From positions 1 through 26,351 of the IMG/VR virus record IMGVR_UViG_3300030382_002551: DNA of 26,351 bases, one strand, 5' to 3'. Shown piece by piece: positions 7,278 to 26,351 of this stretch. The notes below the pieces were generated by a model. That model had not been told where the DNA came from and did not search any database. It saw only the letters and a list, made by a program, of their open reading frames with translations. A program made the translations under genes and the position numbers. The stretch is from a virus. The stretch's first letter is position 1; each line of letters opens with the position of its first letter.

Positions 7278-7322
7278 GGTTTTCGTGTAATGAAGTGTAC
7301 AGTCCGTGATACTTATGAGTAC

Positions 7323-7341
7323 TTAGATAACGCTTATCTAA
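7323..7341. promoter_or_regulatory. Perfect palindrome upstream of the RHH regulator, candidate operator
   Basis: TTAGATAA-CGC-TTATCTAA, two 8-bp arms around a 3-bp centre, in the 77-bp gap upstream of the ribbon-helix-helix and RNA polymerase genes. No T-run follows on either strand, so it does not look like a terminator. Size and symmetry fit a dimeric repressor site. Confidence 0.5.
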
Positions 7342-7354
7342 AAAGTAAAGACAG

Positions 7355-7567
7355 CTAAGCCGCCTCACTCTCCACTCGTTTCGTTTCACTTCTTCTTGTG
7401 CTGTCATCTCCTAAGGAATACCCCTTCAATAGATGGTGTGCGTAATCACAACAGACAATAATCTGCTGCGAGCTTGGCTCCGAACCATATCTAGCTCGGT
7501 GCCATTCTCTGTAATGATCATAGATCTTCCGATCCTCTGCGTATTTACTGAAGGATGTCTTTGTCAT
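7355..7567 (-). CDS. Hypothetical early protein, 70 aa
   Basis: A 70-residue hydrophilic protein starting MTKTSFSKYAEDRKIYDHYREWHRARYGSE (given here only as the first-line composition: many K, R, E, Y and H). It has two adjacent cysteines (VCCDY) and a charged C-terminal tail (RRSETKRVE). No domain was recognised. It lies in the early region upstream of the regulator and polymerase, where T7-like phages keep small host-interaction proteins; that role is only an inference from place. Confidence 0.65.
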   Translation of the reverse strand: MTKTSFSKYAEDRKIYDHYREWHRARYGSEPSSQQIIVCCDYAHHLLKGYSLGDDSTRRSETKRVESEAA

Positions 7568-7587
7568 TTGAAAAATAATAGGGTGAG

Positions 7588-7770
7588 TTAGTGATCGCTG
7601 GGCTTTTTGATAATGAAAGAAAGAGAACGCTCAAGATCCCAAGGAATCCCAGCTGTATTAGTGCATTTTTCATCTTGTGGTAGGTCGTAATTAATCCCAA
7701 GGTCTGATCTCTCTGGCTCCTCTCCAAAAAACCAATCATCTATTTGCTTGGCCCTTTGTTTGGCTTCCAT
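7588..7770 (-). CDS. Hypothetical early protein, 60 aa
   Basis: A 60-residue soluble protein with MEAKQRAKQIDDWFFGEEPE at the N-terminus and a hydrophobic patch (LERSLSFIIKK) near the end. AAGGA lies about nine to ten bases upstream of the ATG. A second minus-strand frame covers the same DNA (ATG at 7673 to 7545) and would encode a 42-residue peptide with a hydrophobic segment (ALIQLGFLGILSVLFLSL); without a ribosome binding site I treat that one as less likely. Function is unknown. Confidence 0.5.
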   Translation of the reverse strand: MEAKQRAKQIDDWFFGEEPERSDLGINYDLPQDEKCTNTAGIPWDLERSLSFIIKKPSDH

Positions 7771-7800
7771 TGGTCTCAGTCCTTGGCTCTTTCTCAGATG

Positions 7801-8031
7801 CTACATACATAGCTCCTGGAACACTTTCTCGTTGATCTCTCTAACGTTGATGCCTGAATCATTCCAAGCGACTCTGTCCGGTGTCTCCAAGGAATCTCCC
7901 TCCCTCATTCTCTCAATGAAAGATTTGTAATCACCTGACTCCTCCGCCAAGATCTTCCAGCCTTCTTCGTTATCAATCCATAAGGCAACATTCCAAGTTT
8001 CGTAATTAGTCCAACCGTTGTAATTAGTCAT
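7801..8031 (-). CDS. Conserved small protein with a 'GWTNYETWNVALWI' N-terminus
   Basis: A 76-residue acidic protein. The frame is open upstream to 8085, but that extension runs back through the terminator hairpin, so the ATG at 8031 is taken as start. The N-terminal YNGWTNYETWNVALWIDN is a well-conserved signature that I recall from many phage and plasmid small proteins, including cyanophage ones, all of unknown function; the rest is helical. It is the first gene downstream of a strong terminator, so its expression needs readthrough or a promoter within the AT-rich 25 bp before it. Confidence 0.8.
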   Translation of the reverse strand: MTNYNGWTNYETWNVALWIDNEEGWKILAEESGDYKSFIERMREGDSLETPDRVAWNDSGINVREINEKVFQELCM

Positions 8032-8055
8032 GGTGAAATTAATTAATAAGAGGAC

Positions 8056-8081
8056 AAAAAAAAGGAGGCCCGAAGGCCTCC
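8056..8081 (-). terminator. Strong intrinsic terminator after the first early gene
   Basis: On the minus strand, a perfect 7-bp stem GGAGGCC and GGCCTCC closed by a TTCG tetraloop is followed at once by eight T residues, a textbook Rho-independent terminator. It begins 7 bp after the stop of the 80-codon gene and ends 25 bp before the next gene's ATG. On the plus strand no T-run directly follows, so it acts in one direction. Confidence 0.92.
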
Positions 8082-8088
8082 ACACCTT

Positions 8089-8331
8089 TTACTTGGTCAA
8101 GCTAAGACTAGGAATTACTTCTTGAACAGACGCCCATCCTTTCTTCAGACTTGCCCAATATCTTGGACAATCTTGGAATAATAGAAGATTAATTTCTTCG
8201 TTATGGATAGCTGTGCGCCTTCCCATGTCTGTCATGTAAGACTTCCAAGGAATAATCCGCTCAGTCTCTTCATAGCCTGCAAGCTTCTCCTTCAGCTCTT
8301 TTAGCTGACTCTCTAGTTGTGCCTTAGTCAT
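8089..8331 (-). CDS. First early protein, hypothetical, 80 aa
   Basis: An 80-residue protein and the first gene downstream of the divergent region. The N-terminal third (TKAQLESQLKELKEKLAGYEE) is a probable coiled coil; the remainder is soluble with three tryptophans. GGAG lies about nine bases upstream of the ATG. A host-type promoter candidate sits about 57-84 bp upstream and an intrinsic terminator follows directly, so this gene could be transcribed alone as the first message. No family was recognised. By position it may act on the host or on early transcription. Confidence 0.7.
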   Translation of the reverse strand: MTKAQLESQLKELKEKLAGYEETERIIPWKSYMTDMGRRTAIHNEEINLLLFQDCPRYWASLKKGWASVQEVIPSLSLTK

Positions 8332-8387
8332 GAGTCGAAACTCCGTGCTGTGTGTATGTAGACCCTCAGATGATGGCCTACAGGATC

Positions 8388-8415
8388 ACTATACATTCCA
8401 TGGATGATTTCGCAA
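8388..8415 (-). promoter_or_regulatory. Candidate host sigma-70 promoter for early genes
   Basis: On the minus strand, TTGCGA (plus 8410-8415), 16 bp, then TATAGT (plus 8388-8393): four of six and five of six matches to the sigma-70 hexamers. Transcription would begin near 8381, about 50 bp before the first early ATG. T7-like phages need such a promoter, since host polymerase must make the phage polymerase. Confidence 0.45.
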
Positions 8416-8543
8416 CCTTTTTCTCCCTGGGCGGCAACACAGACAAAAGAAGAGAACTTCCACAAAGTGCTGCTAAACGATGTATTCCATTGAGTATCTG
8501 TCCCAGAGGCAGTTACTCAGTCCAATCCACGACTGACTTATTG

Positions 8544-8590
8544 ACCCCCCACCCCTCCCTTGGACATATTTTGGACAGGCATTGGGGGGT
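8544..8590. repeat. G/C-run inverted repeat enclosing phased TTGGACA copies
   Basis: ACCCCCCA at 8544-8551 and its exact complement TGGGGGGT at 8583-8590 flank a 31-bp segment holding TTGGACA at 8560-8566 and 8571-8577, spaced one helical turn apart. TGGACA recurs at 8701-8706 and 8715-8720. Such clusters occur at origins, promoters or packaging sites; which of these applies is unknown. Confidence 0.5.
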
Positions 8591-8653
8591 GAGCAGCTTC
8601 TTCCTTATAAACGTAGAGCGTCAGAGATTTTTGCAATAAAAAATCAAGGATCG

Positions 8654-8672
8654 ATCTAAGATCTATCTAAGA
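8654..8672. repeat. Helically phased direct repeat ATCTAAGA
   Basis: ATCTAAGA at 8654-8661 and again at 8665-8672, an 11-bp period, followed by a run of six G. It lies between the TGGACA pairs of the noncoding region and may be a protein-binding site. Confidence 0.4.
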
Positions 8673-8796
8673 GGGGGGAAGAATATCTCTTCTTCTTATA
8701 TGGACAGTGAGTGGTGGACAGGGTTGTTAGTGTATGAGTATTGACCAGGTAACCTCCCAGATCTGATCCCCAAGTTCCAGCAGCGGAATGGTCAAG

Positions 8797-8832
8797 GTAA
8801 GAGCTTTTTCCGTGGTGGGTGGAAGCTCTTAC
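8797..8832 (+). promoter_or_regulatory. 10-bp perfect stem-loop in the terminase leader
   Basis: GTAAGAGCTT (8797-8806) and AAGCTCTTAC (8823-8832) form a perfect 10-bp stem with a 16-base loop, 42 bp before the small terminase ATG. No T-run follows, so it is not an intrinsic terminator. An RNA-processing site (as RNase III sites in T7), a stabilising 5' hairpin or a DNA-level binding site are all possible. Confidence 0.5.
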
Positions 8833-8874
8833 TGGGGAAATGCTTAAGATAAGGGAACAAACGAGAAAGGGATC

Positions 8875-9111
8875 ATGAAGAAGGGGAACACAACAGAGGT
8901 ATTAAGTGAATTACATGCAGGGTTAGCGGATTTATTCATGGAGAAGTTAAGGGAAGGGGAGATGACGACAGCAGATTTAAACGTTGCGCGTCAATTTTTA
9001 AAAGACAATCAGATTAGTTCTCAGCCAGTAGAGGAGACAACCTTTGGGGAACTAGCGAAAGCATTACCAGAGATAGAGAATGTGATTGCTTTTAAAAAGA
9101 AGAGGGCTTAA
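8875..9111 (+). CDS. Terminase small subunit (T7 gp18-like)
   Basis: A 78-residue protein directly upstream of the large terminase subunit. The pattern LHAGLADLFMEKLREGE, then ADLNVARQFLKDNQI, is typical of T7 gp18-type small terminases of marine podoviruses; T7 gp18 itself is 89 aa. These proteins recognise concatemeric DNA and load it on the packaging motor. AAAGGG lies just upstream of the ATG. It is the first gene of the plus-strand block and its stop is three bases before the terL start. Confidence 0.88.
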   Translation: MKKGNTTEVLSELHAGLADLFMEKLREGEMTTADLNVARQFLKDNQISSQPVEETTFGELAKALPEIENVIAFKKKRA

Positions 9112-9114
9112 TTA

Positions 9115-11214: not shown

Positions 11215-11308
11215 TGTTTTTTTAGGTATTTTAGGATTAGTCTGGGTAGGCCTGCCAATTTTTTATGGAAACACCAAAGGATTCAACACCCACAAAAGAA
11301 GAACTTGA
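11162..11308 (+). CDS. Possible 48-aa membrane peptide overlapping the next gene
   Basis: A plus-strand ORF with two ATGs in tandem (11162 and 11165), a hydrophobic stretch MIAAMISVIVFLGILGLVWV (about residues 10-29) and a basic tail. It overlaps the N-terminal end of the minus-strand 59-codon ORF and the first 44 bases of the next plus gene in a different frame. No strong ribosome binding site is seen. It could be a small holin or lysis peptide, or the chance antisense of the minus-strand gene. Confidence 0.3.
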   Translation: MMTTLTDAPMIAAMISVIVFLGILGLVWVGLPIFYGNTKGFNTHKRRT

Positions 11309-11720
11309 AGATAAAAAGAAAGGAATATTAGGTAAACTTACAGATGCAGTTCCCGATCGTGAAGAGCAGATTGCAATCGTTGGTGTTGCAGTCAGATTAG
11401 CGATTGTAGTTTGGTCAGGATTCTGTCTTACTTTGGCTTATATTGATGTTCCTGGATTTCCAAAACAGACCTTCGATCCGACCTTTATAGCAAGTATTTT
11501 TACGTCGACTCTTACTACTTTTGGCGTCCAGGCCGCCAATAAAAAGGGCGAAGGCTCAGTCACCAAGGAGGATATGGAGAAGCTTATTGCTTCAAATAAC
11601 GGAGGGGGTAGTTATCAAACAATCAGGGTTCAAACCCCACTTAAGATTGAAGGAGCTGAATTGGTTGTAGAAGAGAAGCCTCCAGTGGATAATACCTTTA
11701 TTAGTGATAAGGAATCATGA
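11265..11720 (+). CDS. Membrane protein, holin-like candidate
   Basis: A 151-residue protein with a charged N-terminus, a hydrophobic helix at about 36-60 (IAIVGVAVRLAIVVW onward), a second weaker one at about 73-91 (TFIASIFTSTLTTFGVQAA), and a hydrophilic C-terminal domain. The two-segment layout with the short loop DVPGFPKQTFDP is reminiscent of small phage holins, and similar proteins are, from memory, found in cyanophages. It sits downstream of the terminase genes. No endolysin is recognisable nearby, so the lysis role is only an inference. Its stop overlaps the next start as ATGA. Confidence 0.75.
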   Translation: METPKDSTPTKEELEDKKKGILGKLTDAVPDREEQIAIVGVAVRLAIVVWSGFCLTLAYIDVPGFPKQTFDPTFIASIFTSTLTTFGVQAANKKGEGSVTKEDMEKLIASNNGGGSYQTIRVQTPLKIEGAELVVEEKPPVDNTFISDKES

Positions 11721-12226
11721 GGTGGTCGTTCTTAGCCCTGCTGTTCTTTTCAGTGGGGCCTGCGCATGCAGACATGATTCATAAACTCAGCTCCAGTACT
11801 TCCTTGAGGGTGGATGGGGCTGGAGCTACGAGCATTCGTGTGCCGAGTACTTACACAGTCTCAGGGTCAAACGTTAAAGTCTCTACAGCTAATAACAGCG
11901 TGTTCGGTGGATTGACCGCTGGCAGTGTTACAGCTGCAGCGACGATGAAAGTAGGAACCTACGATATAAATACTGCTGGATCGGCTTTTTCATTCTCAGA
12001 AAGCTGGCTCCAAGGAGATAACCCATTAGCAGTTAATGCTGGTGTGGATGTTTCTGCGGGGGTTGTAGCTGATCTCCCCGCGTTTGGTTCAACAACGGTT
12101 AGCTCTGGCGGTGTTGCAGGAAATCTGGCAGGTACTGTCTTGAGTTCTGGCATTGTGACCGCCGTGGCTGGTGGGGCTGGAACTACAGCGACTGGACAGG
12201 TATTTAGTGAACTAACAATTAAGTGA
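11717..12226 (+). CDS. Secreted or virion protein with signal peptide, 169 aa
   Basis: A protein with a clear Sec-type signal peptide (hydrophobic core LALLFFSVG, cleavage after AHA at residue 18), then a mature domain of about 150 residues rich in Ser, Thr, Gly, Val and Ala that looks all-beta. The ATG overlaps the upstream stop as ATGA. It is the first of three consecutive genes of this style. Similar cyanophage proteins are known to me only as structural or hypothetical. A role at the cell envelope or in the virion is possible. Confidence 0.75.
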   Translation: MRWSFLALLFFSVGPAHADMIHKLSSSTSLRVDGAGATSIRVPSTYTVSGSNVKVSTANNSVFGGLTAGSVTAAATMKVGTYDINTAGSAFSFSESWLQGDNPLAVNAGVDVSAGVVADLPAFGSTTVSSGGVAGNLAGTVLSSGIVTAVAGGAGTTATGQVFSELTIK

Positions 12227-12228
12227 TT

Positions 12229-12657
12229 ATGAGAAGGGTTCTCCTTCTATTAATGTTGACTTCTGTTCCGGCGCAAGCGGTCCCAGTGGTCCCTCAATTT
12301 ACTCAAGGGAGTATGACGAGCCATACTGAAACTACTTCTAAGGTTACAGAAACGATTAATTCTATAGACATACAATCGGGATTTCAATATACAGTTACAG
12401 GTACAAACATGAAACATAGTGGATCTTCTGTGTCTCCTACATCAACAACTGGTCCTTCTCAAACAACAGACGGAATTACTTACACATGGGTTGGATTAGA
12501 TCATTCAAACAGACCCAACTGGACACTCGAAACTCCAGGGAATGCTTTCCAATTTACAGAAACATATCAAGCACCAGGCGTATCTCAACAGACGATTATT
12601 CAAAGAGCAACAGAGATTACCAGCGTCACAGATACTACTTCTATCTTTCAGCAATAG
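12229..12657 (+). CDS. Secreted or virion protein with signal peptide, 142 aa
   Basis: Signal peptide MRRVLLLLMLTSVPAQA (cleavage after residue 17), followed by a Thr/Ser-rich, beta-predicted domain with repeated 'TSxVTxT' and 'TETxQxxG' style stretches. The frame also opens two codons earlier at GTG 12223, which overlaps the upstream stop as GTGA; the ATG at 12229 gives a cleaner signal peptide, and neither has a convincing ribosome binding site. It forms a tight run with its neighbours. No enzymatic motif is visible. Function unknown. Confidence 0.75.
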   Translation: MRRVLLLLMLTSVPAQAVPVVPQFTQGSMTSHTETTSKVTETINSIDIQSGFQYTVTGTNMKHSGSSVSPTSTTGPSQTTDGITYTWVGLDHSNRPNWTLETPGNAFQFTETYQAPGVSQQTIIQRATEITSVTDTTSIFQQ

Positions 12658-12674
12658 CTTATGCGATCTTTGGT

Positions 12675-13325
12675 TTGGGCTTTTGTCGGCCCTCTTATGG
12701 TGGTGACATTGGCGGTGTCTCTGCTACCGCCGCTCCTAATGCTTCGAGTAGTGGATCAGTTATCAATCAAGGTGTCCAGGTACTTCAAGGGCCGTTCCAT
12801 ACAAACACTTACGGCAACGGAATCCAATGCCAAGGCACGACCTTGTCGATTACTCCTTTTCTGACGGGGGCTATTTCAACGAAAAGACCATATGAATATG
12901 ATTATTTAGATCCTGTTTATGATAATACCGATTCAGATGGTGATGGAATTATTGATAATCCTGGTGGTATTTTGTATTATAAGAATGTAAGAACTAATCA
13001 GAAGGATTCTAATAGTATTACTGGTGGAATCTCAGCCACTATAAGCATTCCACTAGATAGAAGGTTCTCTAATCGTTGTCTTAACGCGGCTGATACTCAG
13101 ATTAAATTACAGCAACAGATCTTGGCAAACAAAAGATTAGATTTTGAGATTGCTCGTCTTAAGAATTGTGCTGAATTAAGGATTCGCGGTATATCTTTTC
13201 ATCCAAAAAGTAAATCTTATAGTATTTGCAGCGATGTTTTAACGACAGATTACAAGGAGGAAGTGTTACCTCATAACCATTCTATTTCGATAGGCTCCGT
13301 TGCTCCTGACGACGTTCAAAAGTAG
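12675..13325 (+). CDS. Cyanophage-type secreted/virion protein, start unclear (possible frameshift)
   Basis: About 210 residues in the frame ending at 13325: GGDIGGVSATAAPNASSSG, a 'VQVLQGPFHTNTYGNGIQCQG' type stretch (shown only in part), a calcium-loop-like DNTDSDGDG, then LQQQILANKRLDFEIARLKNC. I recognise this combination from cyanophage structural or hypothetical proteins that begin with a signal peptide. Here the only standard start near the previous stop in this frame is TTG at 12675. An ATG at 12661, four bases after the previous stop, opens a signal-like peptide (MRSLVWAFVGPLMVVT) in the neighbouring frame; a one-base change at the T-run 12681-12684 would join it. The last 44 bases overlap the convergent minus-strand gene. 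Confidence 0.7.
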   Translation: MGFCRPSYGGDIGGVSATAAPNASSSGSVINQGVQVLQGPFHTNTYGNGIQCQGTTLSITPFLTGAISTKRPYEYDYLDPVYDNTDSDGDGIIDNPGGILYYKNVRTNQKDSNSITGGISATISIPLDRRFSNRCLNAADTQIKLQQQILANKRLDFEIARLKNCAELRIRGISFHPKSKSYSICSDVLTTDYKEEVLPHNHSISIGSVAPDDVQK

Positions 13326-14364: not shown

Positions 14365-15267
14365 CTATTGATTAGTGATGTTTGTATTAGGGAAGGCTCT
14401 GCCATCACCCCAGATAAGACGAACTACGCCTTGACCTGAGTACGACTCATCACTCCAAGTACCATGTTGACCTTGACCACTACCAGAACCACCACCCCAG
14501 TCACCGCCGTCACCAGCTCTATGATTGGAACTATCCACCAAACCTCCATTTGAAGGGGCATTATTAGCATCTCCAATCCCGCCGCCGCCGCCGCCTGATC
14601 CAGCAGTATCACCGCCTGAACCGCCGCCGCCACCAGCTCCTATACCGTTTGTCGAACTACCTGCATACCCACCTTCTCCGTATCCCCAAGATTGGTAAGA
14701 TCCTGCACCACCGCCGCCTCCAGCATTACCGCCAGAACCACCAGTTAGACTTGTAAAAGCAGTACCTCCAGTACCTCCATCACTTCCACTACCTTCTCCA
14801 CCTATTCCACCAACACCATTATTCTTACCTCTACCACCTTCGTAAGAGCCATCTCCTACTTGTGTCTGTTTAGAAGTAGTGGAATGGCTAGAGCTTCCAC
14901 CACCCCATCCACCACCTATTCCTGAATCTCCACCAGCAGCTTTAACAGTTGTGTTATTTATGAAATATGAATCATCTCCTTCATCATCTCTTTCACCATC
15001 CCCACCTACGGCATGTTCTCCAACCCAAACTGTATAACTGGTTCCAGGCGTAACGGTAATGTTGTTTTTATAGGCACAACCACCTCCACCACCAGCTCTA
15101 CTATTAGGTTGATTATTACCCCCACCACCAGCTCCAATACATACGCAATGTACTAAAGTCACGTCAGCAGGAGCAGTCCAGCTATTACTACCTTCAGTTG
15201 TAAAAGTTGCTTGGCCTATAGGGTGAGGTTTAGCACCTAAGCCAATAAGCATTTGTTGTATAGGCAT
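14365..15267 (-). CDS. Glycine-rich tail tip/adhesin-like protein
   Basis: A 300-residue protein. The N-terminal region (FTTEGSNSWTAPADVTLVHCVCIGAGGGG) resembles the short beta strand that opens glycine-rich phage adhesins; the central 40-270 region has about fifteen runs of GG to GGGGG separated by variable Ser, Asn, Asp and Tyr-rich loops, as in polyglycine-helix receptor-binding tips. The C-terminus (GQGVVRLIWGDGRAFPNTN) matches an ending I recall from cyanophage tail proteins. It follows two fibre genes, so a host-recognition role is reasonable. The variable loops would be the binding surface. Confidence 0.8.
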   Translation of the reverse strand: MPIQQMLIGLGAKPHPIGQATFTTEGSNSWTAPADVTLVHCVCIGAGGGGNNQPNSRAGGGGGCAYKNNITVTPGTSYTVWVGEHAVGGDGERDDEGDDSYFINNTTVKAAGGDSGIGGGWGGGSSSHSTTSKQTQVGDGSYEGGRGKNNGVGGIGGEGSGSDGGTGGTAFTSLTGGSGGNAGGGGGAGSYQSWGYGEGGYAGSSTNGIGAGGGGGSGGDTAGSGGGGGGIGDANNAPSNGGLVDSSNHRAGDGGDWGGGSGSGQGQHGTWSDESYSGQGVVRLIWGDGRAFPNTNITNQ

Positions 15268-16103: not shown

Positions 16104-19100
16104 TTACACTATCTCACCTACACCATAAATAGTCCATTTAAATCTATTAGGCTGTTGATCAAATTTAAATCGTACTTTTGTCATTGCACTATCAGTATCT
16201 AAAATACAACCTCTGAATCCTCCTACCGTTTTATTATGATAATCACCAGTACTAACGGTAGCTGTCATACCAGTCCATGTCATTATTACACCTCCTCCAG
16301 ATTCAGCATAATTTGGGTCATATATAGTTACTTCCCCTGCATTTCTACTGGTGTTATCTGGTAAAATTAAACCATTATCTTCGAAACTACCATACCGTGA
16401 ATAAGCTTGTTCACCATACCATCTTTGGGAGATGTAGGTGGAACTAGTGATATAACCACCTGAATTACCCAATTGACATTTTTGCGAACCTCCTCCACCT
16501 CCTCCAACTGTAAAGAAATACATGATTTTATAGCAAATATATGTATCAGCTTCAAAACCATCATATATCTCGATGTCAGTACCACTTACAGCTTGTCCAC
16601 TATCTACTTTTACCCAACCTGGACTGACTGGATCTGTCCAAGTTAAGCCACCTGTATTACCCGACTGAGCAGACAGAAGTTGACCGTTAGTAGGTGAGTT
16701 AGAAACTTTTAAATTAGCTTCATCTACAACATTACCCGCAATTACTGTTGCACCATCTCCAGTAGAAGTTACTTCTCCAGAGTGGTTAGGGTGTGTATAT
16801 TGGTTAGCCGTTGCCCAAGTTAAACCACCTGTGTTTCCAGATTGAGCTTGTAAGAATTGACCATTAGTAGGTGCGTTAGAGGCTTTTAAATTAGCCTCAT
16901 CAACTACATCATCAGCTATAACTGTCGCACCATCTGCAGTAGAGGTAACTTCACCACTGTGGTTAGGGTGTGTATAAACTGTGTCAGGTGGTACTTGCCA
17001 TGAAGATGTTCCATCTCCATCTACTCGTAAGAATTTAGTAGTACCAGATTCTCCAGTTGATTTAACATCAGTACCTTCTGAAGCTCCATCAGCCCACTCC
17101 ATTCCATTAGATGAAGTGTATTTAAGGTACTTACCATCAGCAGGTGCTTGATGTATATCTAACTTAGCTTCTACAATTGAATCATCAGCTAGTTTACTTC
17201 CAACAATAGCTGCACTATTTGATACTTTGGCATTAGTAATTGAACCATCGACAATCTTTCCAGTTGTTACTGTGTTGTCACTGGGAGTGCCAATGCTTAC
17301 GCTTGATCCTTGAGTGACAATAAAGAAATCACTCCCAGAAGCAGGGGCAGAGCTAAAGACAATATCATTTCCATCAACAGCAAAACCTTCTCCTGGTTGA
17401 CTTGTTCCAGCATTTGGTTTTTGAGTAACTCCATTAACACTTACTATTAATTGTTGAGCCATCGTAGGAGGATTGCTCAATGTAAAACGATAGGCACTGC
17501 CATTGAAAGTTGCACTTCCTCCACCTGTTCCACTAGAACTAGAAATAGTATTGATATAGAAATTACCGACAGAAGCAACGTCATCCCACGTACTGGTGGT
17601 TGCGTTGTACACCTTCATTTTATTGGCAGATGTATCAAAATAAAGATCACCATCATCATTGTTGGACGATGGTGCAGATGAGGCTACGCGATATCTTGCA
17701 TTGAAATCGTTTATATCGTCGCTTAGAGATTTGACATCATTTTCAGAGGCTAATATCTTGTGATAGTTATAAGTATTGCTTGAGCCTGTAGAGACAACTT
17801 GCATGCCAACACCACTGGCAAGTGTCTCACTGTTTAAAGAACTAGGAAAACCATTAATAGTTACTGTTGCGGGTGTGCCATCAGTGGTTCTACCTGTAGT
17901 GCTTGTTCCTGAACCGTTGACAACAACACCAGCAGCATCATTAATACTGACAACAATGCCGTTAGCGGGTTGAGATGCAGTAGCAGGGAAACTTGCATCA
18001 TTAGCAATAACAGTAAATCCTCCAACATTTCCAACTGCACTTGATACGTGAGAGGCAATAACTTTGGAAGAAGGTATTTCTGTATCACTAGTTGTTGTTA
18101 ATGTTCCGTCTCCAGAAGCTCGGAATGTTTTACCAGCGACAATATTTAATTCAGTTGTGCTAGCAGTCGCACCATCTAATTTATTTAATTCGCTGGTGTT
18201 TGCAGTGACACCATCAATTACTGCTTTTTCATTATCAGTTAAAGCATTGGTATCAGAATTAGACTCATAAGCTGTTTTGATTTCTGCTGCTGTTTGATCT
18301 GCTGTAGCGTTATCTTCTATGGCGTTAAGTCTAGAGTGGTCAGTGTCAGTAAAGACATTTGAATCTGTTGCTGATTCGACTAACGCTCGTATTTCTGCTG
18401 CTGTTTGATCGTCTTTTGCTCCAGCGTCTATAGCGTTTAGCTTGGAATGATCAGCGTCAGTAAAGACATTTGAGTCGGTAGCACTTTCAACTAACGCTCT
18501 AATTTCTGCTGCCGTTTGATCGTCTTTTGCTCCTGTATCTATATCGTTTAATTTAGTGTGATCAGCATCGGTAAAAACATTTGAATCACTAGCACTTTCA
18601 ACTAACGCTCTAATTTCTGCTGCTGTCTGGTCGTTTGTCGCACCTGTGTCTATCCCGTCTAATTTTGCTTTATCAGCAGCGGACATACTTCCTGCATTGC
18701 TGCTAGAGGAAGCTTGGAGTTTGCTTCCTGCTATAGCTGCACTGGCATTTACATCTGCATTCAGGATTGTTCCATCAAGAATCTGTGTAGAGCTAATACT
18801 GCCAGCACGTTCAAGATACGCTTTTGTTACTGCATCTTGTGCACTTGTTGGGTCGGCGACTTTAGTTAATCGAAGATTTGTGCCGGATTCTCCTAAAGAA
18901 GGAAGCCCTGTTGATTCATCAACACTGACTGTTTTTGTTTGGTTATCTTTTAATTCTTGGTCTATATATAAACTCTGTAAAGCACTGGTGTCTAGATCAT
19001 TTGCTGTAAGTGTTGAACCGTCAGCGTAATCAACAAGAGGTGTTCCTAATGAAGAGTTACGTCTGACTTCAACTCTCCTATTTGCTGATGTTGTCCCTGT

Positions 19101-19292
19101 GTTTAGACGAATCAGTTTTGGTGAGACGTTGGTTATGACTGCATATTGATTTGATCCTGTGCCCTGAGTCAGTTTTGTGTAGTCAAGGTACACTTCAATA
19201 TGTGCTTCCTTTATGTACGGGAAGGTGAATTGGAAATCAGTGGTCCCTTGTGCTGAGCTGGAATTGACGACGTATGATTGGGTGTAGGACAT
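16104..19292 (-). CDS. Main tail fibre with T7 gp17-type N-terminus
   Basis: A 1062-residue fibre. Residues 1-130 match the T7 gp17 tail-attachment domain (MSYTQSYVVNSSSAQGTTDF, FPYIKEAHIEVYLD, ANDLDTSALQSLYIDQELKD), which docks on the tail. The shaft includes four 37-residue repeats (IDTGAKDDQTAAEIRALVES pattern) and, near the C-terminus, two 59-residue repeats starting YTHPNHSGEV. The last 160 residues (VSPGWVKVDSGQ... to VGEIV) form the likely receptor-binding domain. T7 gp17 is 553 aa, so this is about twice as long. It follows the giant ejection-type protein, as gp17 follows gp16 in T7. Confidence 0.93.
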   Translation of the reverse strand: MSYTQSYVVNSSSAQGTTDFQFTFPYIKEAHIEVYLDYTKLTQGTGSNQYAVITNVSPKLIRLNTGTTSANRRVEVRRNSSLGTPLVDYADGSTLTANDLDTSALQSLYIDQELKDNQTKTVSVDESTGLPSLGESGTNLRLTKVADPTSAQDAVTKAYLERAGSISSTQILDGTILNADVNASAAIAGSKLQASSSSNAGSMSAADKAKLDGIDTGATNDQTAAEIRALVESASDSNVFTDADHTKLNDIDTGAKDDQTAAEIRALVESATDSNVFTDADHSKLNAIDAGAKDDQTAAEIRALVESATDSNVFTDTDHSRLNAIEDNATADQTAAEIKTAYESNSDTNALTDNEKAVIDGVTANTSELNKLDGATASTTELNIVAGKTFRASGDGTLTTTSDTEIPSSKVIASHVSSAVGNVGGFTVIANDASFPATASQPANGIVVSINDAAGVVVNGSGTSTTGRTTDGTPATVTINGFPSSLNSETLASGVGMQVVSTGSSNTYNYHKILASENDVKSLSDDINDFNARYRVASSAPSSNNDDGDLYFDTSANKMKVYNATTSTWDDVASVGNFYINTISSSSGTGGGSATFNGSAYRFTLSNPPTMAQQLIVSVNGVTQKPNAGTSQPGEGFAVDGNDIVFSSAPASGSDFFIVTQGSSVSIGTPSDNTVTTGKIVDGSITNAKVSNSAAIVGSKLADDSIVEAKLDIHQAPADGKYLKYTSSNGMEWADGASEGTDVKSTGESGTTKFLRVDGDGTSSWQVPPDTVYTHPNHSGEVTSTADGATVIADDVVDEANLKASNAPTNGQFLQAQSGNTGGLTWATANQYTHPNHSGEVTSTGDGATVIAGNVVDEANLKVSNSPTNGQLLSAQSGNTGGLTWTDPVSPGWVKVDSGQAVSGTDIEIYDGFEADTYICYKIMYFFTVGGGGGGSQKCQLGNSGGYITSSTYISQRWYGEQAYSRYGSFEDNGLILPDNTSRNAGEVTIYDPNYAESGGGVIMTWTGMTATVSTGDYHNKTVGGFRGCILDTDSAMTKVRFKFDQQPNRFKWTIYGVGEIV
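16623..16976 (-). repeat. Two 177-bp repeats in the fibre gene
   Basis: Two adjacent 59-codon units, each YTHPNHSGEVTSTxDGATV to QSGNTGGLTW plus a short spacer. The QSGNTGGLTW end also occurs in the second fibre gene near 15720-15770. Confidence 0.8.
18210..18653 (-). repeat. Four 111-bp repeats in the fibre shaft
   Basis: Four tandem 37-codon units beginning at minus positions 18653, 18542, 18431 and 18320. The first three are close copies (IDxGAxxDQTAAEIRALVES then SNVFTDxDHxKLN); the fourth is diverged (IEDNATADQTAAEIKTAYES). Exact 111-bp spacing keeps the frame. Confidence 0.88.
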
Positions 19293-19300
19293 GGCTTAAA

Positions 19301-22300
19301 TTAAGTACCTGCTAATTGCCGCCAAGTTGGCAGGCTGGATTGTTTTCCGTACTCCACATCATACTTAAATTGCAGGTTTCGAGACTCTTGCTCTTTAATT
19401 AACCAGCCGAGAGAATTAGGGCCTGTATCAAATTCTGCTATGAATCTTGCTTTTGCGGCTTTGACATAAGGTTCTATTACTTCCCTAAGCTTAGCTATAC
19501 GTTCACTGTTCTTCCCTTCGTAAGGGGGATATGGTGACAGACTCTGATATCTACTCGATCTAATCTGTGACTCTAATGCTTCATGGAGAGTCAGCCCATG
19601 TATCTTTATCTCTTGTGTGCCAATTACTATTAGTCTATTTAACTCGGTTGTATACAATTTTCTATCTGGCAGACTAAACATTCTTCTGTGCCAGACCCTG
19701 AGGCCACTCCCTGTTCCATGGAGTCTTAATAGCTCTTCATCTACAAGATCAGTGGATAAAGTTCTTGTTTTAAATGCTGATAAAGGCATTGCAACATCAT
19801 GGAACATTTTCAAGAAAGGTTCGTCTGGTGAAATCATTTGGCTTCCTGGGACTCCATAGCTAGGAACAGGATTGCCTGTAATTGGATGAAGCCGATTAGG
19901 TTGTGTTGCAGATAGGCCAGGTGTCTTAGCTGCTATTGTTTTTGCAAGGTTCTCGATGATATCTAGCCCCCAGATTGGTTTAGGACTGGCAGCGTCTATT
20001 TGTTTCATATAAGGATCAACTGCATTACGGGCTGCGTTTGAGAAGCCAGGCCAGAATCCTGCAAGTCTTTGTGTTACATAGTATTCAAATGGTTGTCTAG
20101 CACCAGCTTTTGCTCTGAGAGTTTCGTCTCTTGATAATTCTGTCACTAGATCCACGATATCTGTCAGCCCTTGCATTGGACCTTTCATGAATTGTCCAAC
20201 CCCTACTTGGACTAATGTCCCTGTAATTGTTGCTATCACACCTCCTGCGAATGCCATTAAGTCTTCTTCTGTGTGGTCTTTACTAGCGTAATTATCTATA
20301 TATGCTCCAACACCTCCAAAGACCGTTGCAAGTTGATCAAATGCTTCTATCGAATAATATGGAGTCCATTCACTTGTTCTTGGATTCTTAAATCTAATAC
20401 TCCAAGGTTGTCGACCTGATCTTATTTGTTTGTCTCTTATTGTTGTATTGAATTGGCTTAATGGCCCTGTAAATTCCACGTGTTGACTAGCTGCCAGCAT
20501 TAGAGCTAAGGAGAAAGCTGTATAAGCTATTCCAGTCTCTCCTAATGCTCTTGCTCTAGTGTTGGGATTTTGGCTGTTGAAATCTCTCCAATAACTATCA
20601 ACATATCGACTCAATGGTGTAAATCTTAGTGTGGATTTTATTAGGTTATGAGGTGTCCTTACTATTGGAATCATCATCCCTGAGATATTTGAAGTCACAC
20701 GGTTTTTACTACGATGGCCTTTCTGTATAAAGTCGGCTGGAAGATTTGCAAGGCCTTCCATAGCTTGTCTAAAGTGAGTTCCTTGATCGACTTCCTCTCT
20801 CATCCATTGATCAACCCATTCAACAATTTCTCTTGGATTAGTTATACCTTGTTGTCTTGCTTTTAATACTCCATATTGATAGTCTTTCTTCTCTGCTCTT
20901 ACTTTTACACTGTCTGTAAAGTTTACCCAGTCCATTGCATGTTTAGCTTGCTCACCTTTCAATCGACCATCTTTGATGATGGTGCCATTAGCTAGATCTA
21001 CGTCTTCAATACTTGCTTTTATTATTTCATCAGTCTTTCTAGAAGCATAGTCCCAAGCTTTATCTGAACCTGGTTCAAATCCTTTTACTTCTGCATTGGC
21101 TAGTTCTAATTCCATGATTCGGCCCCATTCGGAGGCAGGGCCAACCATTCCTGCAACGAAAGTATCAAACCCACCCATTATTCGACTTGATACACTGCTG
21201 CCTTTCTCTATTGCTTTTAATGCTTTTGCTCCATAGTAAAGACCTTGAGCGATAGGGTTAGCATCTATATCTGCAGAGAAATGATCATCCGGTATTTGCT
21301 CTGTTAATTGTTGTGCTTTAAGGTCGAGTTCTAATTGATCTGGATTAGTCGGTAGTCCTCTTCCGCCGTCAGCTTCATACTTTCTTCTTCCTACGTTGAC
21401 AAATACTTCGTTGTGCTTAATTGCTTCAGTCATCATCTTCCAGGCGTAAGGAAGATTCTGGAGATATTTGGGATAGATACCCATATCTAGACTGATTCTT
21501 TGCCTTGCTGCTTTCCTCGCTGCTGCATCCATTCCAGGCATCTGCATTGCCTCACCCATGGCTTGAGTTATAGGTAATGTTGCACCCCTATAAGCACTTC
21601 CAAGTAGAACTTTCATCCATGTTCGTGTATTAAAGAAGATGAGGTTTCTGTATATACTGGCATATACATTTGGATTTAATCCGCCATCTGGAACTTTGAG
21701 CATCAGCTCTGCTGCTGTTGCTCTAGCACTAGGATTGTTTTTCATGAACCAGGTCAATTCTGTCAACCGATCAAGCGTTTGTATTGCTTCTGGGGTTAAC
21801 TTCTTAGACTTGATAGATTTCAGAACAGTTGCAGGTAGTTTCTTCTCAAGTGTATTTGCAGCCCCTGTAATTGCTGCATCTAATATACTTTTAAATGAAG
21901 GCCCTTCTGGTTTTTGAGGAGGGATTGCTGCTTCTGAATCTATAACTCGGTTCGCTGTGTTCGTGTCAAATATGACAACTTGATCTCCTGTAAGTGGTTT
22001 ATTCGTAAAGTCAGTCCCATATCTAATACCTCCATAACCTTGATCTTCTGCCCAACTTTTAATACCTGTTTGTTGAGCAGGTGTTAGTTCAATCCCGTCT
22101 GGGCTGCTTTTGATTTTTCCTAGATTTAATTCATGAACTAGATCAGTGATCCTTTTGTTGGTAGAAACAAGATCAAGGATGGAAATATCTTGGGGGACAT
22201 TTCCATACAGTTCAACTGAATCAGGAAGTCCAGGCACCTGATTAGTCGAGAAGTACACTCCATCGCCGAGGAAACCTTGCTGAGGAGTGAAGCCATCTCT

Positions 22301-25300
22301 TAAGGCTGATGCGACAGCAGCGTCACTAGTTGTCATTTTTAGTTCTACACCAGCTGCCAAGGCAGAGCCCATGACATCTTCGTGTGGTGTTGCTGCTAAA
22401 CGTAAAAGTTGTCCTGTCTTTCTTGTAAGTGTTTGCCATGCAATCTCTAGTTTTATTTGATCTGTAGTTCTTGCAAGTAAGCGTTGGCCCGCTTCTGCTG
22501 TTTCTTCATTTGTCCTGCCACCTTTGTATTCAAGACTGGCTTGAGCTGCTTGTGAGAGATTTAAATCTCGATGATGCAATATCCCTGCGGCTGCATAAAG
22601 ATCTTCCTTAGAAGAAATGTCTCCTTTTCTAGCGTGTTCATATCTATTGATAGTTGCATCAACGTTATAACCGTCTGCTTTTACTGCATTTGCTGCATGG
22701 TCAAATACCTGTTTAAGTTTGACAGGATCAATTTTTGTTGCTGTCGCTCTATCCCCGAAGGCTTCTCTGAAGGCATCTTCAAAAGCCCTGTTCATTGCAA
22801 TTATGTCTTTATTCTCTCTATTTATGTAATCTGTTTTGCCACTACGACTGATTAACCGTCTGGACTCAGACTCCATTGCTGTATTTACATCTATCTCACC
22901 ATTTTCAATTCCATCTTTGTACTTGCCCATTCCCTCGACAAGTTCATCTGGGTCTATAGAATAAGCAATCTGAGGGTCTCTTCTTGTCTGACGAATAGGC
23001 CCTCTCTTTTTTATGTCATGGAAGAGAGCTTCTTCAAAGATATCGTCCCAACGTGTAAAGCCTAAATCTACTTTTAGTTTGCGTTCAATCCTGCCAAGGA
23101 ATCTTCTGATCTTATTAAAGACTTTTGCTACTCCAGTACCAAGATAATCATCTCTGTATAGCAACCAATTTTGGAAGGAATGAGCTGCAAGTTCTTCTAG
23201 TTCCATATTTCCAACTTCTGCTTTAATTGATGCAATTATTGTTTCAGGTCCGAGCTGTTTGGCGTCCTTATATTTGCGTTCACCTATCTTCGAACGTAAT
23301 GTTAATTCCCTTAAAATGTCTATGTCTTTTCCGAGAATGTCTTTCTCAAAATCCGTTAGAAAATTCCTCCATAGAGCATGGAAGCCTTCGTGAGCTTTAG
23401 TTGCCAATAGCTGATGGAAACTTCGTAGGTTGCCGTCAGAAAGCATTGCAAGAATAAGTATATTATCTTCTACGTCGTAAGCTCCCCAAATACCTACGAT
23501 CTTCCCAGCTTTTTCAGGCTCGCCATACATTTTTGCTTGGTATTCAGATATTGTTGCTTGTAAATTAGATGGCTCTAAGCGGACTCTTGCGTCTGAAACA
23601 CTTGTAAGCTCCCAAGCATTTCTAGCTTGTTGAAGCGTCCAGCCATCCTTTCTGAGCATATCTACCAACATTTTCCGAACTCTCTGTTTAATATTCAGGT
23701 GCCCGTATCGGTTGATGTATGCACTACCTAAAGAGCCTCCTGTAAGATCAGGAGGAAGCTCAGGAAGTTCAGCCATTAATGGCTTATTTCTAGGGTCTAA
23801 TTGATCACCGGGATCTTTAGGGTTAGTAACTGCATCGTATTCTTCTGCAGTTATTCCTTCTTCTTTATATTTTTTAATTAGATTGGGATCTAGGTTCTTA
23901 TATTTCTCCATTAAGCTAGTGTCTTGTTCTGCCTTTATTCGAGCTATCTCTTTTCTTATTGGTTCGTTAATCATCAAAGAAGTGTCGCCGCCTCTCTTCT
24001 CTGCTGTGCGTGTATCTGGAAGTTTTATATATGTATTGCGTGTATCTTTTTTATGTTTCCATATCTTCTTTCTTAACTTATTACCAACCTCTCTGATGAC
24101 TGTTGGATCTAGTCCAAGGTCTTGTATAAGCCATTTCACAATGTAGCCATGATTTTTACTTTGCGTCTTTGCATCAAAAGCAAGTATTGCTACATCAATA
24201 TCTGATTCAAATGAAACTCTAGTTTTTCTGTTCCAAGCACTTCTATATCTGCTAATGGTAGCTTTTAACTGAGGGGGAGTTTTTGTATCAACTGGAGCGA
24301 AGGCGTTATTAATGATTGGTTGATCTTTCTTCCCTTCCAGAAGTTTGGGTTTAATTTGTTTAGTATCTATAGCAGGTTTTTGAAGTAAAGCAGTAGCATC
24401 TTCTTCATTCAGAATTAATAAATCTCCATAAGCATTATGTTTACGGATAAGAACAATCTCACCTTTTTCTCTTAAGCGAATTGATTCTTTTATCATTTTA
24501 TTTCTTAAAGGCAACTCTTTAGGCCACTCACCTAAATCAACAATATCGCCTTCTATGCCAGTAAACTCAAGAATATTTTTTCCATGCTTACCAGCAGCTG
24601 CTTTATTACTTGTTAGATAAATACCTGGACCATACATACCAATTTCAGATCTACTTGCTCCTGTTGTACTATCAGTTCCATGATAAAAAACTTTCGGATC
24701 ATTCTCATCAACTCTGGTCGCTGTGATATCAACGATGGGCCCTTCTCTTTTGGGTATCTTGCCCTCTGCAATATCTATAGCATTCTTTGCAACTTGGACG
24801 ACGTTATCAAAAGCTTCTTTAGTTTTCCTGTCTTCTCCTTTTAAAACTTCTCCAATTTGTCGAAGAATATCAGGTAAGCCATCTGGCTTAAGTCTCTTCG
24901 ATTTAATTGCATCTGTTGGTGGTGGTGCCTCTCCAATCTTCGTTGGAATAGTGACAATTGCACCGTTAATTCTTAATTGACTTAACAGCTCTTGCTGCTC
25001 ATCCATTGATAGGTCGTTGAAATATGTAGTGAACTGTTCCTTGTCAACGAGAGGGCTAATTTCATCTATGTCAGCAGCCTTCCCTTCTGCTATTCGAGCT
25101 CTTAGTTCTGATTCTTTAATATCTATGTCGGCATATTGCTGTTCAAGATTTCGTTTTACTTCCTCTAATACCTCACCACCTTTAAGATTGTTTGCATCGT
25201 CTATGTTAGTTGCGATAATCTCTCTCGCATCATCAAGCTCTTTGAGGAGCTGCTTAATATCCTCTTTCTGTTCGTCGAGCAGCCTGTTTCCCATGTCAAA

Positions 25301-26351
25301 TATACGATCAAATTCTTTGTTGTGTTCTTCGATGTCTTTAAGTACGTATTCACTTTCTTCCCATAGTTTTTTTAATTCTTTGTATTTAGGCTCATTAAGC
25401 ATCTCTTTCCATGCAGCTTCGCTAAAGACTTGTTCTCCTATAGGATCTGCAATTTGAATTACCTGATCCGCTGGGGAATCAGGATTAATCCCTGCTCTTT
25501 CTAGAGCTGCTTCAAGGATTTTCTTTCTTCTGTTAAGGGCTCTTATTCCTGATTCTTTAACCTCTAATGAGTCGAGATCCTCTACTGCAAAACCATGATT
25601 GTCTAGATCTATTTCTCTTCTTGTCTGTTCAGCATCAAGACGTTTTAGATGAGTTTGGATTTGATGGAGAGTTGCTGTCCTTGGTAATTCTTCTACATTA
25701 TTATCACGAAGCAGTGTGAGATCTAGACCTTCAAGAGTTGCCTTTCTAAGGTCTCTCTGATTTTGTGTATGTACAGTATCAAGAGCGGAATCAGCACTCT
25801 TTCGTACTCCTTCTAGCTGCTCGCCAAATTGATCACTTAGTCCTCTCCTGGGTTTAAGATCTTCAGGGCTTATAACTTTTTCTATGTCGATAAGTTTCTG
25901 ACCGGAATCATTAGCTTTTGCTGCAGCATTTTTGAGTGTTTGTTCTGCTGTTTTGACTTGAGTGTTAAGTTCAGTTTGAGAAGCTTTAGGTTGAATAATT
26001 GGAGGTTCAGTTATTGTCTTTCCTGTTATTCGTCGTGTAGGAAGAACTAATCCTTCTGTAGCCGAAGGGCCTGCTTCTTTTAGTTGTATAGCTTCTGCTA
26101 ATTGTTTTTCGGCGGCCTCTTTATGAATAAGATCAGCAACTGTATTTGCTAGTGCATCGATAAGATGGCTTCCCTTCGTGGGTAAATCAGTTTTATCAAA
26201 AAATGTTTTTGCTCCTTGAAGTCCTTTCCATCCTTTTTTAAAAGCGAATGGAAGAAATTTTTCAAAAAACAATCCCCCTGATGGACCGACGATTATGGCA
26301 TCGACCAATGTATTTTTGTTGCGTCTTGTTTGATTGTTATCGTTGGGATTG
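19301..26351 (-). CDS. Giant internal-virion/polyvalent protein with two ART-like domains and an HExxH motif; 5' end outside window
   Basis: At least 2,349 residues. The frame stays open to the right edge; the TTG at 26308 has no ribosome binding site, so the true start is probably outside. Numbering from 26308: coiled-coil-rich N-terminus (about 80-450); ADP-ribosyltransferase-like domain 1 (about 538-640) with FYHGTD (H543) and GPGIYLTS (Y564); a small linker module RVSFESDIDVAI (about 700-740) of the kind seen in polyvalent proteins; HEGFH (973-977) with a downstream EELAAH (about 1038-1043), a gluzincin-type metallopeptidase signature; ART-like domain 2 (about 1330-1455) with GDGVYFST (Y1352) and GDQVVIFD; C-terminal hydrophobic segments (about 1925-1940 and 2015-2040). 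It occupies the gp16 position before the fibre, so it is probably an ejected internal protein (T7 gp16: 1318 aa). No lytic transglycosylase motif was recognised. Confidence 0.9.
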   Translation of the reverse strand, partial: NPNDNNQTRRNKNTLVDAIIVGPSGGLFFEKFLPFAFKKGWKGLQGAKTFFDKTDLPTKGSHLIDALANTVADLIHKEAAEKQLAEAIQLKEAGPSATEGLVLPTRRITGKTITEPPIIQPKASQTELNTQVKTAEQTLKNAAAKANDSGQKLIDIEKVISPEDLKPRRGLSDQFGEQLEGVRKSADSALDTVHTQNQRDLRKATLEGLDLTLLRDNNVEELPRTATLHQIQTHLKRLDAEQTRREIDLDNHGFAVEDLDSLEVKESGIRALNRRKKILEAALERAGINPDSPADQVIQIADPIGEQVFSEAAWKEMLNEPKYKELKKLWEESEYVLKDIEEHNKEFDRIFDMGNRLLDEQKEDIKQLLKELDDAREIIATNIDDANNLKGGEVLEEVKRNLEQQYADIDIKESELRARIAEGKAADIDEISPLVDKEQFTTYFNDLSMDEQQELLSQLRINGAIVTIPTKIGEAPPPTDAIKSKRLKPDGLPDILRQIGEVLKGEDRKTKEAFDNVVQVAKNAIDIAEGKIPKREGPIVDITATRVDENDPKVFYHGTDSTTGASRSEIGMYGPGIYLTSNKAAAGKHGKNILEFTGIEGDIVDLGEWPKELPLRNKMIKESIRLREKGEIVLIRKHNAYGDLLILNEEDATALLQKPAIDTKQIKPKLLEGKKDQPIINNAFAPVDTKTPPQLKATISRYRSAWNRKTRVSFESDIDVAILAFDAKTQSKNHGYIVKWLIQDLGLDPTVIREVGNKLRKKIWKHKKDTRNTYIKLPDTRTAEKRGGDTSLMINEPIRKEIARIKAEQDTSLMEKYKNLDPNLIKKYKEEGITAEEYDAVTNPKDPGDQLDPRNKPLMAELPELPPDLTGGSLGSAYINRYGHLNIKQRVRKMLVDMLRKDGWTLQQARNAWELTSVSDARVRLEPSNLQATISEYQAKMYGEPEKAGKIVGIWGAYDVEDNILILAMLSDGNLRSFHQLLATKAHEGFHALWRNFLTDFEKDILGKDIDILRELTLRSKIGERKYKDAKQLGPETIIASIKAEVGNMELEELAAHSFQNWLLYRDDYLGTGVAKVFNKIRRFLGRIERKLKVDLGFTRWDDIFEEALFHDIKKRGPIRQTRRDPQIAYSIDPDELVEGMGKYKDGIENGEIDVNTAMESESRRLISRSGKTDYINRENKDIIAMNRAFEDAFREAFGDRATATKIDPVKLKQVFDHAANAVKADGYNVDATINRYEHARKGDISSKEDLYAAAGILHHRDLNLSQAAQASLEYKGGRTNEETAEAGQRLLARTTDQIKLEIAWQTLTRKTGQLLRLAATPHEDVMGSALAAGVELKMTTSDAAVASALRDGFTPQQGFLGDGVYFSTNQVPGLPDSVELYGNVPQDISILDLVSTNKRITDLVHELNLGKIKSSPDGIELTPAQQTGIKSWAEDQGYGGIRYGTDFTNKPLTGDQVVIFDTNTANRVIDSEAAIPPQKPEGPSFKSILDAAITGAANTLEKKLPATVLKSIKSKKLTPEAIQTLDRLTELTWFMKNNPSARATAAELMLKVPDGGLNPNVYASIYRNLIFFNTRTWMKVLLGSAYRGATLPITQAMGEAMQMPGMDAAARKAARQRISLDMGIYPKYLQNLPYAWKMMTEAIKHNEVFVNVGRRKYEADGGRGLPTNPDQLELDLKAQQLTEQIPDDHFSADIDANPIAQGLYYGAKALKAIEKGSSVSSRIMGGFDTFVAGMVGPASEWGRIMELELANAEVKGFEPGSDKAWDYASRKTDEIIKASIEDVDLANGTIIKDGRLKGEQAKHAMDWVNFTDSVKVRAEKKDYQYGVLKARQQGITNPREIVEWVDQWMREEVDQGTHFRQAMEGLANLPADFIQKGHRSKNRVTSNISGMMIPIVRTPHNLIKSTLRFTPLSRYVDSYWRDFNSQNPNTRARALGETGIAYTAFSLALMLAASQHVEFTGPLSQFNTTIRDKQIRSGRQPWSIRFKNPRTSEWTPYYSIEAFDQLATVFGGVGAYIDNYASKDHTEEDLMAFAGGVIATITGTLVQVGVGQFMKGPMQGLTDIVDLVTELSRDETLRAKAGARQPFEYYVTQRLAGFWPGFSNAARNAVDPYMKQIDAASPKPIWGLDIIENLAKTIAAKTPGLSATQPNRLHPITGNPVPSYGVPGSQMISPDEPFLKMFHDVAMPLSAFKTRTLSTDLVDEELLRLHGTGSGLRVWHRRMFSLPDRKLYTTELNRLIVIGTQEIKIHGLTLHEALESQIRSSRYQSLSPYPPYEGKNSERIAKLREVIEPYVKAAKARFIAEFDTGPNSLGWLIKEQESRNLQFKYDVEYGKQSSLPTWRQLAGT

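What the first reader, a model, noticed from the sequence alone, without database searches (positions are those of the whole stretch)
19301..26351. Giant gp16-position protein that looks like an injectable polyvalent effector
T7 gp16 is ejected with the DNA and is about 1.3 kb codons long; the protein here is at least 2,349 residues and carries two ADP-ribosyltransferase-like domains plus a metallopeptidase motif. Large polyvalent proteins (described for phages and conjugative elements) package several host-targeting domains in one chain delivered with DNA. Combined with T4 Alt, a virion-borne ART acting on host RNA polymerase, this suggests immediate modification of host proteins on entry. 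Position, motifs and hydrophobic C-terminus are seen; injection and target are inferred.
Basis: partly seen in the sequence, partly recalled or inferred. Interest (0 to 1): 0.85.

Follow-up and report, generated by a model that had tools for sequence, protein, structure and literature searches.

The report
Giant phage ejection protein carrying effectors
A T7-like marine phage has its large DNA-ejection protein enlarged by a block of enzyme-like modules (two ADP-ribosyltransferase-like domains and a metallopeptidase-like domain) that would probably enter the host with the DNA, although neither entry nor any activity has been shown.

Summary
On the minus strand (26350 to 19301) there is one open frame of 2,349 codons, cut at its start by the contig edge; relatives suggest about 340 residues are missing. 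It lies in the T7 gene-16 position. Its C-terminus is homologous to gp16-position internal virion proteins of marine T7-like phages (profile-profile E 1e-28), but no similarity to T7 gp16 itself was found.

The metallopeptidase-like site (H987, E988, H991, E1053) is conserved: HExxH is in all 66 relatives that cover it. ART2 is PARP-like by homology (relatives pass Pfam's PARP cut-off), but the window's copy has lost two of three catalytic residues (M-Y-Q instead of H-Y-E) while staying strongly conserved: a predicted pseudoenzyme. ART1 keeps an intact-looking H557-Y578-D643 triad and is a swappable cassette of about 104 residues, present in four of six close family members.

So at most one ART is likely to be active. 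The AlphaFold models were too poor to test the folds; injection and targets remain inferred. The isolated cyanophages P60 and S-CBP42 also carry an unannotated ART in this protein, which makes the idea testable.

The parts
19301..26350 (-). Giant gp16-position protein, 2,349 codons, 5' end of the gene cut by the contig edge (about 340 residues missing)
   Evidence: Open frame; complete homologue of 2,563 aa in Prochlorococcus phage P-SCSP1u
24401..24694 (-). ART1, residues 553-650: ADP-ribosyltransferase-like cassette, putative triad H557-Y578-D643 (YHGT / GPGIYLT / GDLLILN)
   Evidence: Pfam ART-PolyVal E 2e-4, below cut-off; hhalign to ART2 over 45 columns E 5.6e-6, prob 85.6; three residues conserved in relatives L062, L065, L075, L078-L081; cassette present in L065, absent from L064 between otherwise matching flanks
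22976..23563 (-). Zincin-like metallopeptidase region, residues 930-1125: H987, E988, H991, E1053
   Evidence: HExxH in 66 of 66 relatives covering it; H, E, H and the downstream Glu invariant in 23 distinct sequences
22370..22975 (-). Conserved linker domain of unknown function, residues 1126-1327 (RRLISRSGKT motif region)
   Evidence: Conserved in alignment with P-SCSP1u and relatives
21923..22369 (-). ART2, residues 1328-1476: PARP-like by homology, catalytic positions M1339-Y1366-Q1457 (H-Y-E in other lineages), predicted inactive
   Evidence: Relatives L025, L030, L028 pass Pfam PARP cut-off; family profile hits PARP3 and PARP10 in PDB, E about 0.004; residue table and tree
19433..20920 (-). 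C-terminal region homologous to marine T7-like internal virion protein D, residues 1811-2306
   Evidence: blastp to HTVC025P protein E 2e-14; family profile vs HTVC025P, P-SSP7 gp16, Syn5 gp45 and others E 1e-28, prob 99.8
16104..19292 (-). Tail fibre gene directly downstream, fixing the gp16 position
   Evidence: PHROGs tail fiber protein E 2e-170; homologous to P-SCSP1u 00024, which carries a T7 tail fibre N-terminal domain

Best explanation
This is the gp16-position ejection protein of a DNA-polymerase-lacking, MPP-C-like cyanopodovirus, with a polyvalent effector payload built into the middle of the chain. Homology shows conserved ejection-protein ends (P-SCSP1u 141-374 and 2039-2529 match HTVC025P 143-348 and 735-1209) with far more sequence between them here (about 1,660 residues against 390). 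The ends are inferred to pack the protein in the head and help form the envelope channel; the payload is inferred to enter the host cell with the first DNA. Inferred roles: the zincin domain cuts the chain or a host protein; ART1 ADP-ribosylates a host macromolecule early in infection; ART2, its catalytic residues lost but its sequence conserved, acts as a binding or structural module. Shown: gene position, homologies, conservation, residue loss, cassette behaviour. Not shown: virion presence, entry, any activity, any target.
For: Gene order gp12 - gp13-like - gp14 - gp15-position protein with SLT lysozyme domain - this protein - tail fibre, with Pfam T7_gp14 E 2e-8, Phage_T7_Gp13 above cut-off in L063, SLT_3 E 1e-13, T7 tail fibre E 1e-23. 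C-terminus homologous to marine internal virion proteins. Middle insertion relative to HTVC025P. Zincin site invariant. ART2 relatives pass Pfam PARP cut-off. ART1 cassette present or absent between matching flanks. ART2 amino-acid sequence identical among L062, L063, L064, L075 (dN 0, dS 0.03-0.07). A later paper reports that the P-SCSP1u ejectosome is visible in virion slices, though not reconstructed (PMC11440229). Polyvalent proteins with zincin and ART domains are a described phage theme, predicted to be injected (PMC5512222).
Against: No virion proteomics for this protein or its homologues was found. AlphaFold models of residues 530-1490 and 1490-2349 have mean pLDDT 52.8 and 53.5 and gave no fold match. 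ART1 stays below Pfam's cut-off and its profile found no ART in the PDB. No detectable similarity to T7 gp16. In T7 the gp16 protein works mainly at the envelope; cytoplasmic delivery of the middle part is an assumption.
Confidence: 0.65

Rival explanations
1. The payload is mainly for virion maturation and passage: the zincin is an autoprotease that trims the chain in the head or periplasm, and the ART folds are inactive scaffold or NAD-binding spacers. No host target is modified.
For: Zincin site is the most constant feature; ART2 is degenerate in three lineages yet conserved; ART1 is dispensable, absent from L063 and L064; processing by zincins is the role proposed for polyvalent proteins (PMC5512222).
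Against: ART1 keeps an intact-looking triad; ART2 keeps H-Y-E in most other lineages; the ART in P60's gp16-position protein also keeps His, Tyr and Glu motifs.
Confidence: 0.25
2. The zincin is a cell-wall or envelope peptidase that helps the channel cross the periplasm, and the protein is a passage machine rather than an effector.
For: T7 gp16 carries a muralytic domain used for entry (PMC11440229); the giant proteins here show no SLT domain in Pfam scans.
Against: In P-SCSP1u the muralytic SLT domain is present at the C-terminus of the neighbouring gp15-position protein (SLT_3 E 1e-13), so no replacement is needed; it would not explain the ARTs.
Confidence: 0.07
3. The motifs are chance or an assembly artefact.
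For: ART1 match is below Pfam's cut-off; models are of low confidence.
Against: Same architecture in dozens of contigs and 17 isolated phage genomes; motif conservation and Pfam PARP matches in relatives.
Confidence: 0.03

Closest known systems
Prochlorococcus phage P-SCSP1u gene 00023 (MPP-C clade), annotated 'hypothetical protein'
   Same: Full-length homologue, 33% identity over residues 928-2306, same gene position, zincin site and ART2-like domain. The authors suggested that two genes of sister phage P-SCSP1a may encode internal virion proteins, from size and position only (PMC9860041)
   Different: Has a ParB-like NGHNR region and no ART1; ART2 triad is K-Y-E instead of M-Y-Q
Phage polyvalent proteins (Iyer et al. 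2017, PMC5512222), e.g. N4-like virion RNA polymerase fusions with zincin and ART
   Same: Several unrelated enzyme-like domains in one virion-gene-linked chain; zincin and ART combination
   Different: Chassis is a T7-like gp16-position ejection protein without an RNA polymerase; searches of the paper's main text for T7-like, gp16, cyanophage, Prochlorococcus and Synechococcus found none
T7 gp16, internal virion protein D
   Same: Gene position between gp15 and tail fibre; neighbours gp13 and gp14 recognisable
   Different: 1,318 aa, SLT domain at its N-terminus, no detectable sequence similarity
Synechococcus phage P60 gp34 and S-CBP42 homologue
   Same: gp16-position 'internal virion protein' carrying an ART-like domain similar to ART2 of relative L030 (30% over 151 aa, E 5e-10)
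   Different: 1,639 aa (P60), ART in a different place, no HExxH found
T4 Alt
   Same: Virion-borne ART injected with DNA (described in PMC5512222)
   Different: R-S-E clade ART of a T4-like phage, not part of a polyvalent protein (PMC5512222); no homology test against it was run here

Membership tests
Polyvalent proteins (PMC5512222) | Two or more domains with unrelated biochemical activities in one polypeptide | tested here: met
   Zincin-like site plus ART domains; activity itself untested
Polyvalent proteins (PMC5512222) | Encoded beside virion genes | tested here: met
   Between gp15-position gene and tail fibre
Polyvalent proteins (PMC5512222) | Packaged in the virion and injected | not testable with these tools
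   Only inference from position and homology
T7 gp16 / internal virion protein D | Position between gp15 and tail fibre in a T7-like late operon | tested here: met
T7 gp16 / internal virion protein D | Sequence homology to marine proteins so annotated (HTVC025P, P-SSP7 gp16, Syn5 gp45) | tested here: met
   hhalign E 1e-28, prob 99.8
T7 gp16 / internal virion protein D | Sequence homology to T7 gp16 | tested here: inconclusive
   No significant match to T7 gp16 or a profile of five T7-like gp16s; deep divergence not excluded
T7 gp16 / internal virion protein D | N-terminal lytic transglycosylase domain | tested here: inconclusive
   Window lacks its N-terminus; not found in 16 relatives, full-length ones included; SLT is in the gp15-position neighbour of P-SCSP1u
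ART superfamily, ART2 | Homology to a curated ART family | tested here: met
   Relatives L025, L030, L028 above PARP cut-off 26.7 bits; window copy 38-40% identical to members of this group
ART superfamily, ART2 | Catalytic H-Y-E triad | tested here: not met
   M1339-Y1366-Q1457 in the window
ART superfamily, ART1 | Homology to a curated ART family above cut-off | tested here: not met
   ART-PolyVal E 2e-4 but 22.6 bits vs cut-off 31.2
ART superfamily, ART1 | H-Y-[E/D] residues | tested here: met
   H557, Y578, D643 conserved in relatives; third residue assigned by pattern only
Zincin metallopeptidases | HExxH plus downstream Glu | tested here: met
Zincin metallopeptidases | Zincin fold | tested here: inconclusive
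   Helices around the motif modelled with fair to high pLDDT, sheet poorly; no Foldseek match

The most novel reading that the evidence does not exclude
Marine T7-like phages use the gp16 ejection protein as a general chassis for swappable effectors: ART, zincin and ParB-like modules are gained, lost and exchanged in the middle of the chain, and an ancestral ART that decayed into a pseudoenzyme in the window's lineage was joined by a newly acquired ART cassette.
Probability: 0.4. Interest if true: 0.8.

Novelty: new variant of a known kind. Interest (0 to 1): 0.6.

Why it matters
If true, the podoviral ejection channel would also deliver host-modifying enzymes, giving small T7-like phages something akin to T4 Alt before any gene is expressed. 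The relatives include MPP-C cyanopodoviruses, described in the literature as an abundant and cosmopolitan lineage (PMC9860041). Because P60, S-CBP42 and the P-SCSP1 phages are recorded as isolates with named hosts, virion content and early ADP-ribosylation could be tested directly.

Tried and rejected
Folding several domains in one job was probably a poor choice. Single-protein scan of viral contigs found nothing; alignment-based scans worked. T7 gp16 comparison by profile failed. No relative of the C-terminal region in genome contigs. ART1 absent from 50,697 phage records at E 0.1. Literature: no paper held joins 'internal virion protein' with 'ADP-ribosyltransferase' and 'podovirus'. PHROGs gave no family for the window protein. 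The MAFFT DNA alignment of the ART1 boundary was misplaced on one side; the boundary claim rests on the protein sequences printed in the same call.

Full report
What was claimed and what is there. The open frame is real: minus strand, 26350 to 19301, 2,349 codons, no stop, its start cut off by the contig edge. The window is a complete virus record of 26,351 bases. Relatives suggest about 340 residues are missing.

Which phage. The window carries a T7-type RNA polymerase, primase/helicase, exonuclease, endonuclease, Gp2.5-like ssDNA-binding protein, large terminase and tail fibre. Its closest named relatives are the Prochlorococcus P-SCSP1 phages: terminase 83% identical, and no DNA polymerase gene between primase and exonuclease, as reported for the MPP-C clade (PMC9860041). 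The host of the window's phage is not known.

Gene position. In P-SCSP1u and in contigs L063-L065 the order is gp12, a gp13-like protein, gp14, a gp15-position protein, the giant protein, tail fibre. Pfam recognises gp14 (E 2e-8), gp13 (above cut-off in L063), and the T7 tail fibre N-terminus (E 1e-23). The gp15-position protein of P-SCSP1u ends in a lysozyme-like SLT domain (E 1e-13), the activity that T7 keeps at the N-terminus of gp16. The window itself shows only the giant protein and the downstream fibre; the upstream genes are inferred from relatives.

Homology of the chassis. The C-terminal part matches the 'internal virion protein D' of Pelagibacter phage HTVC025P (blastp E 2e-14), which in turn matches gp16-position proteins of many marine T7-like phages. 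Profile against profile, the family matches a set including P-SSP7 gp16 and Syn5 gp45 with probability 99.8 and E 1e-28. No match to T7 gp16, alone or as a five-sequence profile, was found. P-SCSP1u matches HTVC025P at both ends (141-374 with 143-348, E 2e-4; 2039-2529 with 735-1209), leaving about 1,660 residues in the middle against about 390. The payload therefore sits inside an ejection-protein frame.

The zincin-like region. HExxH is present in 66 of 66 relatives that cover it (about 22 distinct at 92% identity). H987, E988, H991 and E1053 are invariant among 23 distinct sequences. Chance expectation is 0.045 such motifs per chain. A PDB profile search gave only FtsH, at a non-significant E of 0.04, aligned over its HExxH.

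ART2. Family members L025, L030 and L028 pass Pfam's PARP cut-off (30.5, 31.1 and 27.1 bits against 26.7), and the family profile finds PARP3 and PARP10 at E about 0.004. The catalytic positions are H-Y-E in most lineages, K-Y-E in the P-SCSP1 group, I-Y-E in L053 and M-Y-Q in the window and its four close relatives in the tree. Three different replacements suggest separate losses; a two-state count on the tree needs at least two changes, and some placements are uncertain because of long branches. In the window's clade ART2 is nevertheless the least-changed segment compared (from the window, dN 0.25-0.26 against 0.39-0.42 for the C-terminus; dN 0 among L062, L063, L064 and L075). I read it as a conserved pseudoenzyme.

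ART1. Residues 553-650 carry YHGT and GPGIYLT, and match ART-PolyVal weakly (E 2e-4, below cut-off). It is related to ART2 by profile over 45 columns (E 5.6e-6, prob 85.6). H557, Y578 and D643 recur in relatives L062, L065, L075 and L078-L081; the other ART1 relatives found (L082-L088) lie in frames of 1,214 to 3,656 residues, several of them cut by the edge of the stretch held. L065 has the cassette and L064 lacks it between matching flanks (EEIKKEV / FAKDKA). No isolated phage record contains it at E 0.1. The third catalytic residue is assigned by pattern only.

Independent support. Isolated Synechococcus phage P60 carries an ART-like domain in its gp16-position internal virion protein, with VYHAT and GSGVYT motifs and a TETFLFD ending, similar to ART2 of L030 (E 5e-10); S-CBP42 carries a 74% identical one. 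Pfam does not detect it in P60.

Mechanism. The best reading is an ejection protein with a built-in polyvalent payload. A later paper states that the P-SCSP1u ejectosome is visible in virion slices though not reconstructed (PMC11440229). Polyvalent proteins are predicted, not generally shown, to be injected (PMC5512222). Packaging, entry into the cytoplasm, cleavage by the zincin and ADP-ribosylation by ART1 are all inferred.

Limits. The AlphaFold models had mean pLDDT 52.8 and 53.5; only the helical part around the zincin motif and some other helices were fairly confident, and fold searches returned nothing meaningful. No virion proteomics was found in the held library.

Verdict. Novelty: new variant of a known kind, with a directly testable system in isolated cyanophages.

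Noticed in passing
L062, L065 versus L063, L064, L075, residues matching window 930-1125: The zincin segment of L062 and of L065 differs sharply from that of L063/L064/L075 (dN about 0.37-0.44) while the next segment is nearly identical (dN about 0.01-0.08), suggesting exchange of this module by recombination.
   Followed up: partly
L002 13711-16572 (P-SCSP1u gene 00022): The SLT lysozyme domain is at the C-terminus of the gp15-position protein, next to the giant protein, rather than at the N-terminus of gp16 as in T7.
   Followed up: partly
L098 3790-8709 (Synechococcus phage P60 gp34): Unannotated ART-like domain at about residues 390-545 of an internal virion protein, shared with S-CBP42.
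   Followed up: yes
L083, L084, L086, L087, L088: ART1-like domains lie in frames of 3,192 to 3,656 residues in contigs of about 25 to 105 kb; not otherwise examined.
   Followed up: no
window 2-742, minus strand: Frame of at least 247 residues at the contig edge, after the exonuclease, with no PHROGs or Pfam match.
   Followed up: partly
window 11265-13325, plus strand: Cluster of small frames after the terminase, two starting with signal-like hydrophobic stretches; match PHROGs families of unknown function.
   Followed up: partly
window 7080-9114: RNA polymerase and terminase genes, at opposite ends of the linear P-SCSP1u record, are about 2 kb apart here, so the contig appears to run across the genome ends.
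   Followed up: no
window 14365-15267, minus strand: Glycine-rich protein after the tail fibre (Pfam Gly_rich_2), possibly an adhesin.
   Followed up: no
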